A DNA stretch of 64,000 nucleotides. It comes from Cyanobacterium stanieri PCC 7202. Lineage in GTDB: Bacteria; Cyanobacteriota; Cyanobacteriia; Cyanobacteriales; Cyanobacteriaceae. Positions 10,285 through 18,014 of the stretch are shown here, in pieces (position 1 is the stretch's first letter; the number at the start of each line of letters is the position of its first letter). The notes under the pieces were generated by a model. It searched no databases. It saw only the letters and a program-made list of their open reading frames with translations, and was not told the DNA's origin. The position numbers and the translations under genes are program-made. The DNA is taken from NCBI GenBank assembly GCA_000317655.1, contig CP003940.1:1781547-1845546 (forward strand), in the 5' to 3' direction.

Positions 10285-11238
10285 ATGTCAGAAGATTCTC
10301 AAACTATCTCCCTTCCCAGTGTTGAAAGTGCGATCGCCCTTGCAGGAAAACAAGAAGAAAACCTAAGATATATAGCGAAAATGACAGGGGCAAACTTATC
10401 GTTACAGGGGCAAGATGTCGCCATCTACGGTAAAGCAAAACCCGTTGCGAGGAGTATTGAAGTAATCAAGGCATTAGAAGCCTTTTGGTTAGAGGCAAAA
10501 CCCATCACCGAGTCAGATATATTAGTGGTGTTTCATGCCCTTGACACCAATAAAATGGAAGAATACGAGGGAATCCAAAAAGAAGTATTAGCCCGTACGA
10601 GAAATGGGGAATTAATACGAGCTAAAACTTTTAAACAAAGACAGTATGTTAAAACTATCCAAAAATATGATATTACCTTTGGTATTGGTCCAGCTGGTAC
10701 AGGAAAAACCTTTTTAGCGGCCGTTTTGGCAGTACAAGCCCTCTTGAATGATGAATGTGAAAGACTTATCTTAACCCGCCCTGCCGTAGAAGCGGGAGAG
10801 AAATTGGGCTTTTTACCGGGGGATTTGCAACAAAAGGTTGATCCTTTTTTACGTCCTTTGTACGATGCTTTGTATCAATTCATTGAACCGATTAAAATTC
10901 CTGAACTGATTGAAAAAGGTAAAATAGAAGTTGCTCCCATTGCCTATATGAGAGGGAGAACCTTAAGTAATGCTTTTGTAATCGTTGATGAGGCACAAAA
11001 TACCACCCCTGCACAGTTAAAAATGGTTTTAACCCGTCTTGGTTTTGGTTCTAAAATGGTGGTGACGGGGGATATTACTCAAACTGATTTGCCCAACCAA
11101 CAACAGTCGGGCTTGATTGTGGCGGCAAAAATTTTACAGGATGTCAATGGTATTGGTTTCTGCAATCTCACCCAAGCAGATGTTATTCGTCATCCTTTGG
11201 TACAAAAAATTGTGGCGGCCTATGAAAAGCATCTTTAA
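10285..11238 (+). CDS. PhoH family ATPase
   Basis: A 317-residue cytoplasmic protein. The N-terminal third (about 1-110) is the KH-like/PhoH-N region. Walker A is GPAGTGKT (135-142), with RPAVEAGEKLGFLPGDLQQK after it, and Walker B is in AFVIVDEAQNTT near residue 235, followed by the TGDITQTDLP sensor. PhoH-like (PhoL/YbeZ) proteins are NTPases linked to RNA metabolism, often next to ybeY; here no ybeY is seen. It is the last + strand gene before the unknown operon. Confidence 0.9.
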   Translation: MSEDSQTISLPSVESAIALAGKQEENLRYIAKMTGANLSLQGQDVAIYGKAKPVARSIEVIKALEAFWLEAKPITESDILVVFHALDTNKMEEYEGIQKEVLARTRNGELIRAKTFKQRQYVKTIQKYDITFGIGPAGTGKTFLAAVLAVQALLNDECERLILTRPAVEAGEKLGFLPGDLQQKVDPFLRPLYDALYQFIEPIKIPELIEKGKIEVAPIAYMRGRTLSNAFVIVDEAQNTTPAQLKMVLTRLGFGSKMVVTGDITQTDLPNQQQSGLIVAAKILQDVNGIGFCNLTQADVIRHPLVQKIVAAYEKHL

Positions 11239-11294
11239 ATGAGCTTTAGATTTACTTCGTAATTGGAAACTTGCATTACTTACTTGATACTTTC

Positions 11295-12701
11295 TTAAAA
11301 AGGTACTTCAATAATAAGTAATAAAGATCTCTCTCGGCTATATTGATCTTCCTGCATATATTGCATTCTGGTTAGGTGGTGCTGTCTATATCTCACACTA
11401 ATTTCTACTGGATTACTTCTCTTTCCTTTTGGATCTATGATTCTTGCTCCAAAATTTCCCTCTAATGTTTTTCTTATATTAAACTCGATATTCCTTGGAT
11501 TAAAATCTGAATTTGTAAGTAATTCTCCTCTTAAACTTCCTGTCATCCGTGCAAAAGGTGTAACTTCTTTTGAATAGATGTTAAATGATTGGAATTGCTG
11601 CTCTAGCCACGGTGATATTGTCAATCTAGCTCTCAATCTATTGTGTAAGGGGAAAAGATTTTCATTATTTTGAGAAAGGATAGAATTAGAGAAATCAAAA
11701 TTCATACCTGATCCAGCCTTACCCAAAATATTTGGAGCCTCTTTTTTGAATTTTGCTAATAGTCGGGAATCTAGACTGACTTGTCCTCCTCTCTGTTGGT
11801 TTGGATATCTTAATGTTGTTCCAAAGCGCCCATTAATCGTTACTGAGTCTTTTACTAAATTATCACTCACCGATGATTTATTCATCAACCAAATAATGGC
11901 GACACCTAACTCTCTAAGGTTTTCATTAGTACCTAGTGTAAATCCTGATTCAACGCTAAACGGACCACCTATCGGCATCGTTATTTTCGTAAATTTTTGA
12001 AATCCAAATCGTTTTAATGGTGGTAATGGTGGATCTTGTGAATTGGTAACTTCTCTAACTTCTATTCTAGATTCTATACTTGCCTTTTTTTCTTTTTTAG
12101 CTTGATTTGGCTCAGAACTATCGGCTCTATCATCGGGGGAAGGTTCAGGATCCATAGAAAAATCATCCCTGTGGTCTGCCTTCGCTCGGTCGGTTGGTTG
12201 TGGCTCATCCTCTGGTAGCTTCTGTTCCATAGAATTACCCTGTTCGATATTCGCTCGGTCATTTTGATTTATTTCCTGATCTGAAACATAATCTGATTCT
12301 GGCGAATTTATATCCTCACTGCTTTCAGCACGATCAACAGGGGTTTGCTCTTTTGTGGGCGATTTTTCGGGCTGTCTTGGCTCAATCCCCTGCCCCTTTA
12401 AATTACCTGTATTATCATCATGGTCAACTGGTGTTTTATCATCTATAAAACCGTGGTCAAGAGGATTATTAAATAGCAGTGATGAGTCTGGATTAGGCAC
12501 TCCATCGAAAAAATCACCGTCCCAATGATTGTATCCTGAAGCATTTCCCTGTGGATAATGGCACTGTGTACTATGACACTGAATAGAGGATATATCTTGT
12601 GAATCATTGCCAGCATTCATCTTTTGGCTAACAAGATCTCCTAATCCCTGAGAAGCAGATTCAGATAATGCCTCGATAACTGCAGTTATAAGGTCAGCCA
12701 T
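11295..12701 (-). CDS. unknown protein, third gene of coupled operon (acidic repeat linker plus C-terminal domain)
   Basis: I choose ATG at 12701 (MADLITAVIEAL, 468 aa) because GGAGG lies 5 bases before it; an upstream ATG at 12713 is inside that Shine-Dalgarno. Residues 1-30 look helical. Residues about 75-205 are hydrophilic and Asp/Glu/Pro/Ser-rich with spaced TPVDHDD, TPVDRAES, QNDRANIE, PTDRAKAD and PDDRADSS units, a degenerate repeat of roughly 20-30 residues. From about 215 a folded, beta-rich part begins (ITMPIGGPFSVESGFTLG, RARLTISPWLEQQF, VEISVRYRQHH, ending LLLIIEVPF). No signal peptide or membrane helix is obvious. I do not recognise the family. The start overlaps the previous gene's stop by 8 bases, so translation is probably coupled. 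Confidence 0.75.
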   Translation of the reverse strand: MADLITAVIEALSESASQGLGDLVSQKMNAGNDSQDISSIQCHSTQCHYPQGNASGYNHWDGDFFDGVPNPDSSLLFNNPLDHGFIDDKTPVDHDDNTGNLKGQGIEPRQPEKSPTKEQTPVDRAESSEDINSPESDYVSDQEINQNDRANIEQGNSMEQKLPEDEPQPTDRAKADHRDDFSMDPEPSPDDRADSSEPNQAKKEKKASIESRIEVREVTNSQDPPLPPLKRFGFQKFTKITMPIGGPFSVESGFTLGTNENLRELGVAIIWLMNKSSVSDNLVKDSVTINGRFGTTLRYPNQQRGGQVSLDSRLLAKFKKEAPNILGKAGSGMNFDFSNSILSQNNENLFPLHNRLRARLTISPWLEQQFQSFNIYSKEVTPFARMTGSLRGELLTNSDFNPRNIEFNIRKTLEGNFGARIIDPKGKRSNPVEISVRYRQHHLTRMQYMQEDQYSRERSLLLIIEVPF

Positions 12702-13713
12702 TACTACCTCCATATTGTTTATCTGTTATGGGAGGACGAACAATAACTTGTGCATTCAAATGTGCTTCACAAATAGAGAAATAATCAGAATTTATTTCCA
12801 AAATAATGCTTTCATTTTCCACCAATAAAGCTGAGAGAGGTAGATAAGCTGTTAATGTTTGTAAAGGAGGAGAAACTTCCAAGATCGAAAATTCACTACA
12901 TTGACTTTCCAATTCATGGAGAGAGAAAATAGTATATGTAGAATCAATAGATTCCAATAAATGAAATTTTCTTAGTAATGGTCTTCCTAATGAATTATTT
13001 TGTCCTTGGCGAAATTGAAATTCAGTTAAGTAACTATCAAACTGAACATCGGCTTTGAATAAAATTCTATAGGCAATAATATCTTCCTTGGATTCGAGAT
13101 TTGTTTGATGTCGTAAGTCCTCTGGTTGGGAAGGGGATGTAGAACCTTCTGAGACAATTTCTATGGTGGTGGGGGAGTCATTTTCAGGATCTTGTCCTTG
13201 TACCCACATATCCAATGTCACCCCATATCCAAAACCATCGGAAGGTGTTAGCCTTGATGTTGCTAATTCCCAGGCGGCACCCTTTAACTGTATCGGTTGA
13301 GGAAAAACATAAATAGGACTTTGCCAACTACACTCGCCCACATTCAAAGATACAAGGGTTGCTTGTCCTTCCACTTCCATGGCTCGCATATTTCTTATTA
13401 ATCCACGGTGAAAATCATCATATCCACCTATGGTGTGTACACGATGGGCATAGGGGTCCGCATAAAACTGCGGAAACATTTCCTTACGTAATGTAATCTT
13501 TAACATCGGTCTGTCTTCCAAGTTAGAACGTGACATTAATTCTAAAAGGTTGTCTGCTTTTAACAGTAAATTTATGCCACTAACGTCAACGCCCATACCC
13601 AGTTGAACAGATTTAGTTATTCCCATATTATTGGGGGATGAAGCTAAATTAATATCCTCTGCATCTCGCAGATAAGCGTCTATTCCTGCTAGTTGAACAC
13701 GATCAATAATCAT
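12694..13713 (-). CDS. unknown protein, second gene of coupled operon
   Basis: A 339-residue protein beginning MIIDRVQLAGIDAYLRDAED. Visible parts are VQLGMGVDVSGINLLLKADNLLELM (about 37-60), a KITLRKEMFPQFYADPYAHRV stretch, WQSPIYVFPQPIQLKGAAW near 135, a Pro/Ser/Glu-rich break near 180-205, and a beta-rich C-terminal half with LTAYLPLSALLVENESIILEI. No signal peptide, membrane segment or catalytic motif is evident. Its start overlaps the end of the 913-residue gene by 11 bases and is preceded by GGAGG 9 bases upstream. The co-translation implies that its product works with the other two. I do not recognise it. Confidence 0.8.
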   Translation of the reverse strand: MIIDRVQLAGIDAYLRDAEDINLASSPNNMGITKSVQLGMGVDVSGINLLLKADNLLELMSRSNLEDRPMLKITLRKEMFPQFYADPYAHRVHTIGGYDDFHRGLIRNMRAMEVEGQATLVSLNVGECSWQSPIYVFPQPIQLKGAAWELATSRLTPSDGFGYGVTLDMWVQGQDPENDSPTTIEIVSEGSTSPSQPEDLRHQTNLESKEDIIAYRILFKADVQFDSYLTEFQFRQGQNNSLGRPLLRKFHLLESIDSTYTIFSLHELESQCSEFSILEVSPPLQTLTAYLPLSALLVENESIILEINSDYFSICEAHLNAQVIVRPPITDKQYGGSNG

Positions 13714-16444
13714 TTTTTACTACCTCCTCAAGCATATCAAACCAAACATCCATTACGAGATCTTGTTCACAAGATCCAATATTTCCAGTTCTAAGTTTTT
13801 TCAAACCATTAACCATCCCATTACCAAAACGAATTCTGACCCATTCGTCACGGGTTGTATACAATTTGTCAGTTAGGGCTGGAAGTTCGAGGTTTAAGGG
13901 AATCGTACCCACCACAATATCTAAGGGTAATTCTTGCCAATGAAAGTTTACCCCTTCTCTTCGATTACGAATAGTGCCTGACTGAAGTAGATCACGTACT
14001 ATTCTGCGATTTAGCTGTCCTCCTCGGTATTCGGTATAGGATTCGGACTCATCATAACTATCATCACGGGTTTGAGCATAGTAACGACCTGTTTTGTTGG
14101 CTGTGAGACTAATTTTCCCTGTATTACCATTGGCGGATGTGCGGGTACTGGTGGGCAATGATGGAGTCATAGAAATACCTTTAGAAACTCCCCCCCCCAC
14201 AATGAAAGATACACCTGCGTTGACTCCCAGATTAAATCCAATTCCATTTAACATAAAATATCTACGGACTGTTTCTTCCCCCACAAAACTGGTCAGTGTG
14301 CTTACATCTACTCCATCGTCTAGGGTAAGAAAATCTGTTGCTCTATTTACCATGTCTGTAAATATTGAATCGATGGGTGGGATAGATAAGTTTAGCAGTC
14401 CGTCAATATCAGTAAGGCGATTAGAATCTAGTCCTTGCCACATTTGCCCACTACCCCAGCCATCTCCTTGTAAAAGTACATTTTGTGGTGGTCTGTCAAT
14501 AATTGTTGCACTCAATATACGTTGTAATTTAGTAACAAAACTAGGAATGGCGTTATTGCTTCCATCCACAAAACCAATATGTTGTGTATGGGTACGACTT
14601 TCAGCATTACTGCTCATATAAAAGGAATCTGGTCCTGGATTGGGATTGTAGGTTGTGAGAGGAGAAGATGAAAAAGGCCATGAGGTGCCTTCCCCCGTTT
14701 GAGAGCGTTTCCAACCCTGAGAACCTCCGTAATGATAACGGTGATCAAAACTTTTATCTAGTGTTTCTGATCTTTCTACACTGACATCTCTAACGGTTTC
14801 TAAGTAACGCTGGTTGGCATATAATTTTACCCCTGATAATTGCAATAAATCTGTAAGGCTACGGGCTTCAAACAATATTTCTTTTAGTTCTCCTCCAACA
14901 ACATGCTCAATGGTAAATTTGAATCCATGTTTGCCTAGACGACTATAGTCTTCGGCTAAATCTTTACCGATCATTCGGAAGTTGAGTTGGCGCATTTGTT
15001 GGCTACGGGATTGACGAGAACTAATAAACACATGGGCTGATTGAATTAGCTCTAACTTTGTCAATGCGAGGTGTCCTTCTCTGGTACAGTGGAATACCGC
15101 CACAAAGTAACGGGCGTTGGTGGGACGAGAAAAACGGCATTGGAGGGTATCTCCTTCAAAGATTTGGTTTTGCTGATAGTAAATTAAATTACTGTATTGG
15201 TCATGGGCAGGATCTCGTTCCGATTCCATGGCAATAGGTGATACTCCTTCTACAGGATCAACTTCATAAATTAGTAAATCGAAGATACCAGAGTTATCAT
15301 TGGTCAACGATGTAACTTGTCTAGGGTTGGGCAGACTGAGAGTTATGCCACTTAGACAGCGAGGATGTTCTTCTGTTTGTTGAAAATAAAGTCGAACTTG
15401 CTCTCTTTGTTGAACTTTTTGCGAGATAAAAATTTCATCGATATTTAAGGGGTTATTATCACTTGGTATTTGATATAGGCGACCACCATTAAAAAGTGAT
15501 GCGGCACTCATGGGGAAATATCCCACGGCATTGGTTCGGGTGAAAACAAAATCGGTGGATGTATTTTTCATTTGGTTTCTCATCTGGCGGGGAAATTTTC
15601 CCTGCTCGAAATAGCTTTGTTCTAATGAGTCGGACATTTTTACTGCCCCTAACAAACCCGCTGGAACTTTTGGAGTATAACGGACATCTTCTGAGTAGCT
15701 AAAAACTCCTAAGTAAGGTATGAATACTCCCCAAAATTCTACGGTGCGATCGCTATCAGGTTGAATTCGACGTATAATACGGGGAAAATCGGCAAAGCGA
15801 ATTCTGATTTTTTCACTTTTTACAGGACCTGTGGCGATTAGGTGTAAACCACTATGGGAGGTTGGTTCTTGTCGTACGAATGCTACTTTTTCATCAAGAA
15901 ATCCTGTTTGGATGTGATCTTCCCAAGAAACATGAATTTCTCGGGGCAGACCAAAATTAGCGGAATTTTCGCCTTGAGGTGTGATGTAATAGGGAAGATA
16001 AGGATAACCACCGAACAAAATTCCTCCTATGATAGGGCATTGAGTTCCACGCATCGTCTCAAGGGTTATTTCAATTTCAAACCAGAATTCCTGTGACTTT
16101 TGATTTTCTTCTATAACTGGTCCACCCGCCCTTACGGTTATAAAAGGATTAGTAACATTAGAAGGTAATCCTACTACTGTCTCTACATTGTCCAGATTAG
16201 AAGTTGGAAAAGTTAATGTTCCTGTGCCAGGAGCTCCACCCCTAACAAGAACATCAGGCATGAAATCTTCTATATTTATGGGAGGAGGTTCAAATCCTGG
16301 TGGTGGTATCTCGTGAGCGGTTTCCGCATATACAATAGATCCCGAGCTTGATAATATTGGAGAGCGACTAATTATACTCACATTTACCACTTCAATTAAT
16401 TGCCCGACTGTGGTACGTAATGGCATATATTTGGTGCTATACAT
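13703..16444 (-). CDS. unknown 913-residue protein, first gene of coupled operon
   Basis: The start at 16444 has AGAGGG 4 bases upstream. The protein is long, soluble-looking and beta-rich: PITVRAGG-like strands in the first 130 residues, EIHVSWEDHIQTGF near 170, VEFWGVFIPYLGVFSYSE near 235, then repeated strand patterns (LYQIPSDNNPL, RCLSGITLSLPNPRQ, ARYFVAVFHC). A glycine-rich stretch near 725-745 (FNLGVNAGVSFIVGGGVSKG) is followed by a Ser/Thr/Asn-rich segment with ISLTANKTGRYYAQTRDD. It has few cysteines, no clear signal peptide and no enzymatic motif I can name. The size and beta-rich look suggest a structural or binding protein, which is inference. One HIP1 octamer (15746-15753) lies inside, so the gene has probably been resident for some time. 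Confidence 0.8.
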   Translation of the reverse strand: MYSTKYMPLRTTVGQLIEVVNVSIISRSPILSSSGSIVYAETAHEIPPPGFEPPPINIEDFMPDVLVRGGAPGTGTLTFPTSNLDNVETVVGLPSNVTNPFITVRAGGPVIEENQKSQEFWFEIEITLETMRGTQCPIIGGILFGGYPYLPYYITPQGENSANFGLPREIHVSWEDHIQTGFLDEKVAFVRQEPTSHSGLHLIATGPVKSEKIRIRFADFPRIIRRIQPDSDRTVEFWGVFIPYLGVFSYSEDVRYTPKVPAGLLGAVKMSDSLEQSYFEQGKFPRQMRNQMKNTSTDFVFTRTNAVGYFPMSAASLFNGGRLYQIPSDNNPLNIDEIFISQKVQQREQVRLYFQQTEEHPRCLSGITLSLPNPRQVTSLTNDNSGIFDLLIYEVDPVEGVSPIAMESERDPAHDQYSNLIYYQQNQIFEGDTLQCRFSRPTNARYFVAVFHCTREGHLALTKLELIQSAHVFISSRQSRSQQMRQLNFRMIGKDLAEDYSRLGKHGFKFTIEHVVGGELKEILFEARSLTDLLQLSGVKLYANQRYLETVRDVSVERSETLDKSFDHRYHYGGSQGWKRSQTGEGTSWPFSSSPLTTYNPNPGPDSFYMSSNAESRTHTQHIGFVDGSNNAIPSFVTKLQRILSATIIDRPPQNVLLQGDGWGSGQMWQGLDSNRLTDIDGLLNLSIPPIDSIFTDMVNRATDFLTLDDGVDVSTLTSFVGEETVRRYFMLNGIGFNLGVNAGVSFIVGGGVSKGISMTPSLPTSTRTSANGNTGKISLTANKTGRYYAQTRDDSYDESESYTEYRGGQLNRRIVRDLLQSGTIRNRREGVNFHWQELPLDIVVGTIPLNLELPALTDKLYTTRDEWVRIRFGNGMVNGLKKLRTGNIGSCEQDLVMDVWFDMLEEVVKNDY

Positions 16445-16967
16445 TTAACCCTCTTGGTATTATTTACATCAGAAATGTTGCATATTCAATACCTATAAAA
16501 GTATTTGCTCAATACTTCAATTTATCTATATAAATGCAACAAGTCTAATAAAAATTACCTGTCATTCAAGAAAAATGGGAATATTTTTTGATGGGTGTTG
16601 TACAAAACCAAACACAGCAATCCCTCATTACTACCACAAAAAACTGATTTACAGGGATTATATTAACTTTCAGCTTTTATGGTTAATGGTAAATGTTTTA
16701 ATAGTAGGTAATTTTATGGGTAAATTTTAACTGAAAAATTATTCAACTACCATAAATATTTTATTTTGTTTATAAAAATTAATGATATAAAATGTGGGTA
16801 TATCATTTAATTGTTATACTCACAAAAAACAACTATACTTCAAAAAAAGCAACTCAGAAACCTATATCTGTTATGACAAAGTTTTTCTCTTTTGCTATAT
16901 TTTTCTTGATTAAATAGACAGTTAAGATAATTCGTGGTTTTTTTCATGAACGCTCTCAAAGTCTTAT
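16445..16967. other. 523-base AT-rich intergenic region upstream of the unknown operon
   Basis: The region separates the operon start (minus strand) from the 3' end of the TPR/HEAT gene (minus strand), so it must hold the operon promoter. It is strongly AT-rich. I see no convincing gene; a 51-codon + strand frame at 16575-16730 lacks a ribosome-binding site. A large upstream region is compatible with complex regulation, but I can point to no specific operator. Confidence 0.5.
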
Positions 16968-18014
16968 TTATTCGACATTGCGATTATCTTCGATGAGGGT
17001 GGCGTCGACTTCTTGGGCATAGTCTTGATGATTGTCGTCGGGCAACATATTTTGATTGGAGGCAATTTTTTCTAGGGCTAAAAGGGCAATTTCCCTTACT
17101 TCAGGATCTGGATCATTATAAGCTGTTTGGGTAATAATGGGCTGAATTTGGATGATTAATTCATACACTTTGGTAATGTCTCTGAGGGCATTTTTGCGGA
17201 CATTGCCATGATCATCCTGTAGGGATAATATTAGGGCTTGATTGATGGGTTTAATACTATTAAATGCAATTTGAGATATGGCTTCTAAAATTAAGGTCTT
17301 TTCTTGAGAGTTACTTTTAATCATTATATCCAGCAAAGGGGCGATCGCCCTTGAATCGGCTTCTGAAGCTAAACGCCAAATAATTTTACTCCTATTTTTC
17401 GATTCTCCTTGTACCAATTCTTGTAATAATTCTTCGGTTTTATCCCTAGGTTTTTTGACTTCAGGATTAATTCTTTTTGCTAGTTGTCCTTGAGCGTTAG
17501 ATAACTCTTTTTTTTCTAAAATATTGTCATCATTATTTAATGATAATTGTTCAACTTTTCGTTGAGAAATTTTCTTGGCAGAATTGTTGTTATTTGCTAA
17601 TATTTTTATACCAATAATAATCAAGGTAATACTAATAATAATTACGAGAATAACAAGGGAAATAAGTAACATAAATAAAATATTATCCATGTTCCAAGTA
17701 TTGTTATCACGATTCGCCATCATGGTTTCAACATTATTAATCGCCCTTTGAGCATAGGCATCCTCGGGACGATGGGAGAGGGCTGTTCTAAAATAGTTCA
17801 AAGCCTCTTCATATTGGCGATTATTGGTGGCCTGATAACCCCTTTGCATATTCTCGTCATAAAGAACCGCAGGATCTTGATTGATTTCTTGTGCAGAGGC
17901 GATCGCCCTTACTTTGTAACTAATTTGAGAATTATTAGGAGAAGATAAGTTAGGGAAAAGGTTACAAAAAATGATAAATAAAGTCAATTTTAACAGCCAT
18001 TTTTTGCTATTCAT
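16968..18014 (-). CDS. TPR - membrane helix - HEAT-repeat protein
   Basis: A 348-residue protein in three parts. A signal-peptide-like N-terminus (1-45) precedes a TPR-like unit at about 56-95 (GYQATNNRQYEEALNYFRTALSHRPEDAYAQ). A strong transmembrane helix follows at about 112-138 (ILFMLLISLVILVIIISITL). The rest (about 185-330) is a HEAT-like array (SKIIWRLASEADSRAIAPLLDIM, DDHGNVRKNALRDI, DPDPEVREIALLALEKI). The topology implies TPRs outside the cytoplasm and HEAT repeats inside, i.e. a scaffold that could link both faces of a membrane. Function is unknown. It lies downstream of prfC on the same strand, with a 179-base gap. Confidence 0.72.
   Translation of the reverse strand: MNSKKWLLKLTLFIIFCNLFPNLSSPNNSQISYKVRAIASAQEINQDPAVLYDENMQRGYQATNNRQYEEALNYFRTALSHRPEDAYAQRAINNVETMMANRDNNTWNMDNILFMLLISLVILVIIISITLIIIGIKILANNNNSAKKISQRKVEQLSLNNDDNILEKKELSNAQGQLAKRINPEVKKPRDKTEELLQELVQGESKNRSKIIWRLASEADSRAIAPLLDIMIKSNSQEKTLILEAISQIAFNSIKPINQALILSLQDDHGNVRKNALRDITKVYELIIQIQPIITQTAYNDPDPEVREIALLALEKIASNQNMLPDDNHQDYAQEVDATLIEDNRNVE

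What the first reader, a model, noticed from the sequence alone, without database searches (positions are those of the whole stretch)
11295..16444. Three-gene operon of unknown, probably structural, large proteins
Seen: three frames of 913, 339 and 468 codons overlap by 11 and 8 bases, strongly suggesting co-translation and joint function. None has a motif I can name; the first is beta-rich with a glycine-rich stretch, the third has an acidic repeat linker and a folded C-terminus. No transport, phage or enzyme signature is visible. The proteins hint at one assembly (fibre, shell, surface or extracellular structure), which is inference. This is the best candidate for an undescribed system in the window.
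Basis: partly seen in the sequence, partly recalled or inferred. Interest (0 to 1): 0.78.

Follow-up and report, generated by a model that had tools for sequence, protein, structure and literature searches.

The report
Three-gene toxin system with swappable tip
Three overlapping genes in a bacterium, likely a cyanobacterium, have relatives that lie together in unrelated bacteria and in archaea; the first two stay alike while the end of the third differs and in some relatives resembles DNA-attacking toxins, so the trio is likely a rare weapon in which two proteins of an undescribed kind would carry an exchangeable toxin into other cells.

Summary
The trio is real and conserved. A (913 aa) and B (339 aa) match no family in Pfam, PHROGs, NCBIfam or PADLOC, yet 11 loci in other species' genomes, bacterial and archaeal, carry A followed by B; in 9 of 11 the two overlap by the same 11 bases. 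A third same-strand gene (453-567 aa) follows in all 10 loci whose contig reaches. It has the build of a polymorphic toxin: window and L002 are 90.5% identical in DNA from 50 bases before A to codon 198 of C, then unrelated. Elsewhere this place holds a DddA-like DNA deaminase (Pfam, above cut-off), a colicin-type DNase (E about 1e-3, below cut-off), and, by eye only, a deaminase and PD-(D/E)xK-like tips. The window's own 274-residue tip has no relative found. Against: three Roseobacter loci keep one C, so exchange is seen in only one close comparison. Predicted folds: jelly rolls in B and in the N-terminal half of A (CBM32/discoidin-like), plus a 265-residue, mostly low-confidence region in A. 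Best reading: A and B bind target cells and deliver C. Delivery, passage and target are inferred. No immunity gene flanks the window's trio. Only 1 of 386 genomes sampled from its phylum (itself) has A.

The parts
13703..16444 (-). Gene A, 913 aa; conserved carrier candidate
15026..15679 (-). A residues 256-473: predicted CBM32/discoidin-like jelly roll
13988..14782 (-). A residues 555-819: mostly low-confidence region, present in most homologues, with invariant W578, E615, R617; candidate for rearrangement (inferred)
   Evidence: strand-alternation test not significant
13722..13729 (-). GAGGAGGT inside the end of A: ribosome-binding site for B (reading by eye)
13703..13713 (-). 11-base A/B overlap ATGATTATTGA, stop of A and start of B
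12694..13713 (-). Gene B, 339 aa; predicted beta protein with a jelly roll at residues 89-256
11295..12713 (-). Gene C, 472 aa (or 468 from 12701): toxin-like third protein
12120..12713 (-). Constant N-terminal part of C (shared with L002)
12123..12335 (-). Acidic linker of C with four DRA motifs
11295..12119 (-). Variable tip of C (about 274 aa), predicted toxin domain of unknown family
16445..16967 (.). AT-rich intergenic stretch upstream of A (25.6% GC; no frame over 51 aa); homology with L002 ends 50 bases before A

Best explanation
The trio is likely a self-contained three-part toxin: C ends in an exchangeable part predicted to be a toxin domain, and A and B, a conserved pair of undescribed families, would bind target cells and carry that part inside. 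Shown: A, B and a third gene in one order in unrelated bacteria and archaea; the coupled A/B junction; clean replacement of C's end between the window and L002; similarity to known toxin domains at that place in two other loci. Predicted: jelly-roll domains in A and B like those of sugar- and surface-binding proteins. Inferred and untested: that A, with B, assembles on the target; that the low-confidence region of A rearranges into a passage; that C's N-terminal part and DRA linker dock it to A and B; that the tip then acts inside, on nucleic acid in those relatives whose tip can be read. The missing immunity gene beside the window's trio fits a tip that is kept inactive or aimed at distant cells such as grazers.
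For: B follows A in 11 of 11 loci, with an 11-base overlap in 9; a third gene follows in 10 of 10 loci with enough sequence. A and B distances correlate at 0.987 over 11 rows and 0.938 over 7 non-redundant ones. Window and L002: 90.5% DNA identity over 4389 columns, ending at window 12119 inside C. L004/L011 tip: Pfam DddA-like E 3.2e-7, 30.7 bits against a cut-off of 25. L005 tip: Pfam Col-Pyo_DNase E 8.9e-4, PDB colicin E7 E 6.8e-4. Shared middle section but different tips in L006/L008 and L007. Folds. Patchy spread.
Against: The window's own tip matches nothing, so its toxicity is inferred from position. Of 8 distinct third proteins only 1 passes a curated cut-off and 1 more has E near 1e-3. 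Close relatives do not always differ: C of L009, L010 and L012 is 91-96% identical over its length and L004/L011 99%. No direct sign of a pore: the strand-alternation test reached p 0.05 in only 5 of 37 homologues. No secretion signal or transporter was found for A, B or C. Immunity genes, usual in polymorphic toxin systems, are not seen beside the window's trio. No expression or complex data.
Confidence: 0.68

Rival explanations
1. A and B form a closed shell or fibre that packs C as cargo, released by lysis; no membrane passage by A is needed.
Confidence: 0.17
2. The trio is an intracellular defence or abortive-infection module: A and B sense an invader and C's tip kills the infected cell.
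For: Rare, patchy, transferred between phyla; nuclease- and deaminase-like tips; no immunity gene beside the window's trio; L006 lies beside what looks like a CRISPR array.
Against: No PADLOC match for 9 proteins scanned; no ATPase, nucleotidase or sensor domain in A or B; the predicted jelly rolls are of the kind found in surface-binding proteins.
Confidence: 0.08
3. A, B and C together form a surface or extracellular structure, and the third protein is not a toxin.
For: Beta-rich folds; tips of the window, L002 and L009 match no toxin family.
Against: DddA-like and colicin-type similarity at the same place in other loci; abrupt replacement of the tip next to 90% identical DNA.
Confidence: 0.07

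Closest known systems
Polymorphic toxin systems (Zhang et al. 2012, PMC3482391; passages seen)
   Same: Constant N-terminal part, variable C-terminal toxin, deaminase- and nuclease-type tips, patchy spread.
   Different: None of the listed delivery domains in the window's trio; two separate conserved partners A and B; no immunity gene beside the window's copy.
Tc toxins (abstract of PMC7861908 seen in a listing)
   Same: Three kinds of protein, the last with a C-terminal toxic part carried by the others.
   Different: No Tc, SpvB or RHS family matched in A or B; A and B are much smaller than TcA and TcB (sizes recalled).
Binary pore-type AB toxins (recalled)
   Same: Separate binding/translocating and enzymatic proteins is the proposed logic.
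   Different: No family of that kind matched in Pfam; pore not shown.
Extracellular contractile injection systems (abstract of PMC8213781 seen in a listing)
   Same: Toxin-carrying particles in environmental bacteria and archaea.
   Different: No phage-tail family matched in A, B or C; two carrier genes rather than a tail cluster. The rest of the genome was not searched for such a cluster.

Membership tests
Polymorphic toxin systems | Constant N-terminal part with exchangeable C-terminal part | tested here: met
   Window against L002: DNA 90.5% identical up to codon 198 of C, unrelated after; module sharing among L006, L007, L008. L009/L010/L012 and L004/L011 show no exchange.
Polymorphic toxin systems | C-terminal part belongs to a toxin family | tested here: inconclusive
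   Met in relatives L004/L011 (above Pfam cut-off) and probable in L005; the window's own tip matches nothing.
Polymorphic toxin systems | Immunity gene next to the toxin gene (usual, not universal: the 2012 tables show some toxin families with none listed) | tested here: not met
   Window: 56 bases to convergent phoH downstream, only frames of 51 aa or less upstream of A. L004/L011 have a 168-aa gene between A and B that could be one.
Polymorphic toxin systems | Known trafficking domain (T5SS, T6SS, T7SS, PVC, TcdB and others) | tested here: not met
   No such family in A, B or C. Hence filed as a new variant, not as a member of a named route.
Tc toxins | TcA, TcB/SpvB and RHS domains | tested here: not met
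   No Pfam match of that kind in the window's A, B, C or in the 39 A and 33 B rows scanned.
Pore-forming or translocating protein (for A) | Membrane-inserting strands and oligomer | tested here: inconclusive
   5 of 37 homologues reach p 0.05 in the alternation test; oligomer prediction not run.
CBM32/discoidin-like fold (for A) | Jelly-roll fold of that type | tested here: met
Anti-phage defence systems (PADLOC) | Match to a described defence protein | tested here: not met
   0 matches for 9 proteins.

The most novel reading that the evidence does not exclude
A previously undescribed, self-contained toxin-delivery machine: two proteins of new families form a glycan-binding carrier and passage, need no known secretion system, share one 11-base junction across bacterial phyla, occur also in archaea, and deliver a modular toxin whose tip is swapped by recombination; some tips, the window's among them, are new toxin families.
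Probability: 0.5. Interest if true: 0.88.

Novelty: new variant of a known kind. Interest (0 to 1): 0.76.

Why it matters
Polymorphic toxins are known through a limited list of delivery routes. A two-protein carrier that no family library holds, scattered over bacteria and archaea, would add a route, and one small enough (A and B together about 3.7 kb) to rebuild and study in the laboratory. It also gives a place, directly after gene B, where unknown toxin domains can be read off by position: of 8 distinct third proteins here, three tips (window, L002, L009) have neither a family match nor a motif I can name. The archaeal copies bear on the open question of how archaea attack other cells.

Tried and rejected
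Families of A, B, C: nothing above cut-off. A weak NCBIfam match of C (E 0.0052, 16.8 bits against a cut-off of 170) lies mostly in the acidic linker and was set aside. PDB by sequence: the A profile gave one meaningless hit (E 1.9), the B profile none, the window tip none. Viral, phage and plasmid collections: no relative of A; the viral scans rest on a few exact peptide patterns, so this is weak, and B and C were not searched there. B against birnavirus VP2 was rejected as a whole-protein match. A against viral models: leading hits at E 6e-5 but TM about 0.1, rejected. Strand-alternation test for a membrane hairpin in A: not significant. Empty site: in same-genus genome G003, phoH and the HEAT/TPR gene lie about 130 kb apart on one contig, so no simple empty site could be shown. 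Rfam: nothing in 11000-17200. Sampling for A or B: 1 of 60 relatives, 1 of 386 of the phylum, 1 of 62 in the order of the Brocadia genome, 1 of 398 in the phylum of the Noviherbaspirillum genome, 2 of 119 in the order of the Methanoperedens genome, 2 of 295 in the family of a Roseobacter genome; every genome counted as a hit was already known from the window.

In print: nothing on this trio in the listings. Only listings were seen, except PMC3482391, of which passages were seen (not all matching places are shown there). Preprints and most subscription journals are not held. One search used a species name that I only recalled for the window.

Full report
What is there. Three minus-strand genes, A (13703-16444), B (12694-13713) and C (11295-12713), overlap at both junctions. 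At the A/B junction the DNA reads gaggaggtagtaaaaaATGATTATTGA: the last codons of A hold a ribosome-binding site (by eye) and the start of B. An 11-base overlap occurs at the same place in L002, L003, L005, L006, L007, L008, L009, L010 and L012, with the identical 11 letters in L002, L003, L005, L007 and L008. The two archaeal loci L004 and L011 instead have 704 bases between A and B, with a 168-aa gene. Part of the conservation of A's last and B's first residues may come from this shared coding, but A of L004 and L011 still ends in EDY without the overlap. The window's genome is one contig of 3,163,381 bases.

Relatives. A search of 5.8 billion proteins gave 40 A-like proteins, the weakest at E 3.9e-62, none with a precomputed Pfam domain; B gave 22 including itself. 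39 rows (38 of the 40 and the window) were aligned for A. One scan of the species-genome collection with one conserved peptide pattern gave 20 stretches, of which 11 encode A; such a scan must miss relatives. Record titles name a Rhodospirillaceae bacterium, an uncultured archaeon and a Methanoperedens, Candidatus Brocadia, Noviherbaspirillum, Desulfosarcina, three Roseobacter, one Oceanobacillus and one Psychroflexus MAG. The last two labels look doubtful: the Oceanobacillus genome falls in the family of a Roseobacter genome, and the Psychroflexus contig is 5.8 kb long and 90.5% identical in DNA to the window. In the groups sampled the system is rare and no new carrier turned up. This pattern suggests horizontal transfer.

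The unit. In 11 of 11 loci B follows A on the same strand, directly in 9 and after one small gene in 2. Distances in A and B correlate at 0.987 over the window and ten loci (L008 left out because its A is broken; 0 of 2000 permutations as high) and at 0.938 over seven non-redundant rows. In all 10 loci with enough sequence (L003 ends 390 bases after B) a third same-strand gene of 453-567 aa follows, from a 20-base overlap to a 43-base gap in the eight loci measured; L010 and L012 were read.

C is built like a polymorphic toxin. Against L002 the window is 90.5% identical in DNA from 50 bases upstream of A to window position 12119, inside C; beyond that, forced alignment gives about 35-50% and BLASTN finds no continuation. 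In protein terms residues 1-200 of C are 75% identical and no further match is found. The sequence outside, on both sides, is not shared apart from short repeat-like matches. In other loci the C-terminal part can partly be read: DddA-like double-stranded DNA deaminase in L004/L011 (Pfam E 3.2e-7, above cut-off; PDB DddA only E 0.063); colicin-type DNase in L005 (Pfam E 8.9e-4, below cut-off; PDB colicin E7 E 6.8e-4). L007 has, by eye, an HAE...CxxC deaminase-like pattern (Pfam E 0.11, not significant). L006 and L008 share a tip with invariant VELK after an invariant D, which I read as PD-(D/E)xK-like (no family match). L006, L007 and L008 share a middle section, and L005 weakly so (E 7e-4 to 0.02), although L007's tip differs from that of L006/L008. 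The window, L002 and L009 tips match nothing above cut-off. So of 8 distinct C proteins (near copies L010, L011, L012 not counted), 1 passes a curated cut-off, 1 is probable, 3 are by eye, 3 unknown. Against frequent exchange: C of L009, L010 and L012 is 91-96% identical over its whole length, and of L004 and L011 99%; the window-L002 pair is the only close pair that differs. The genome holds no second copy of C.

The linker of C carries DR[AST] motifs: 13 in residues 91-225 of 8 C proteins against a shuffle mean of 1.24, with none of 5000 shuffles reaching 13. But 8 of the 13 are in the related pair window and L002; L006 has 2, L007 1, L008 2, and L004, L005, L009 none.

Immunity. In the window 56 bases separate C from convergent phoH, and no frame over 51 aa lies between A and the next gene. 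In L007 a convergent gene begins about 40 bases on. In L004/L011 about 215 bases follow before a convergent gene, but the 168-aa gene between A and B could be an immunity gene. L005, L006, L008 and L009 have short or doubtful frames. The absence is clearest for the window.

Mechanism. I propose that A and B form the carrier, that their jelly rolls bind surface sugars, that A's low-confidence region makes the passage, and that C's N-terminal part and linker dock it so that the tip enters. Shown: the unit, the coupling, one tip exchange, toxin similarity in two relatives. Inferred: binding, docking, passage, target. The rivals are a closed particle, an intracellular defence module and a structural role; the tips speak against the last.

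Known or new. It works like a polymorphic toxin and, in its three-part logic, like Tc toxins, but shows no delivery domain of either. I file it as a new variant of polymorphic toxin system with an undescribed carrier pair.

Noticed in passing
L006:15893-20700: Repeated short peptides in several frames after the trio in the Brocadia locus look like a CRISPR array; read by eye only.
   Followed up: no
L004:7269-7775 and L011:10128-10634: A 168-aa gene between A and B only in the archaeal loci, no family above cut-off; candidate immunity or accessory protein.
   Followed up: partly
L008:10001-12915: Gene A of the Desulfosarcina locus is split into two frames of 787 and about 185 aa; left as found.
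   Followed up: no
L002 and L005: Record labels (Psychroflexus, Oceanobacillus) do not fit the sequence: probably mis-binned or mislabelled.
   Followed up: partly
13703-13729: The conserved end of A (EEVV..DY) is also coding space for the ribosome-binding site and start of B, so one stretch of DNA serves two proteins in several phyla.
   Followed up: yes
10285-11238 and 16968-18014: phoH (81-96% identical in four same-genus genomes) and a HEAT/TPR gene flank the trio; in G003 they lie about 130 kb apart.
   Followed up: partly
L009:16391-18169: An RTX-repeat protein gene lies just beyond C in a Roseobacter locus.
   Followed up: no
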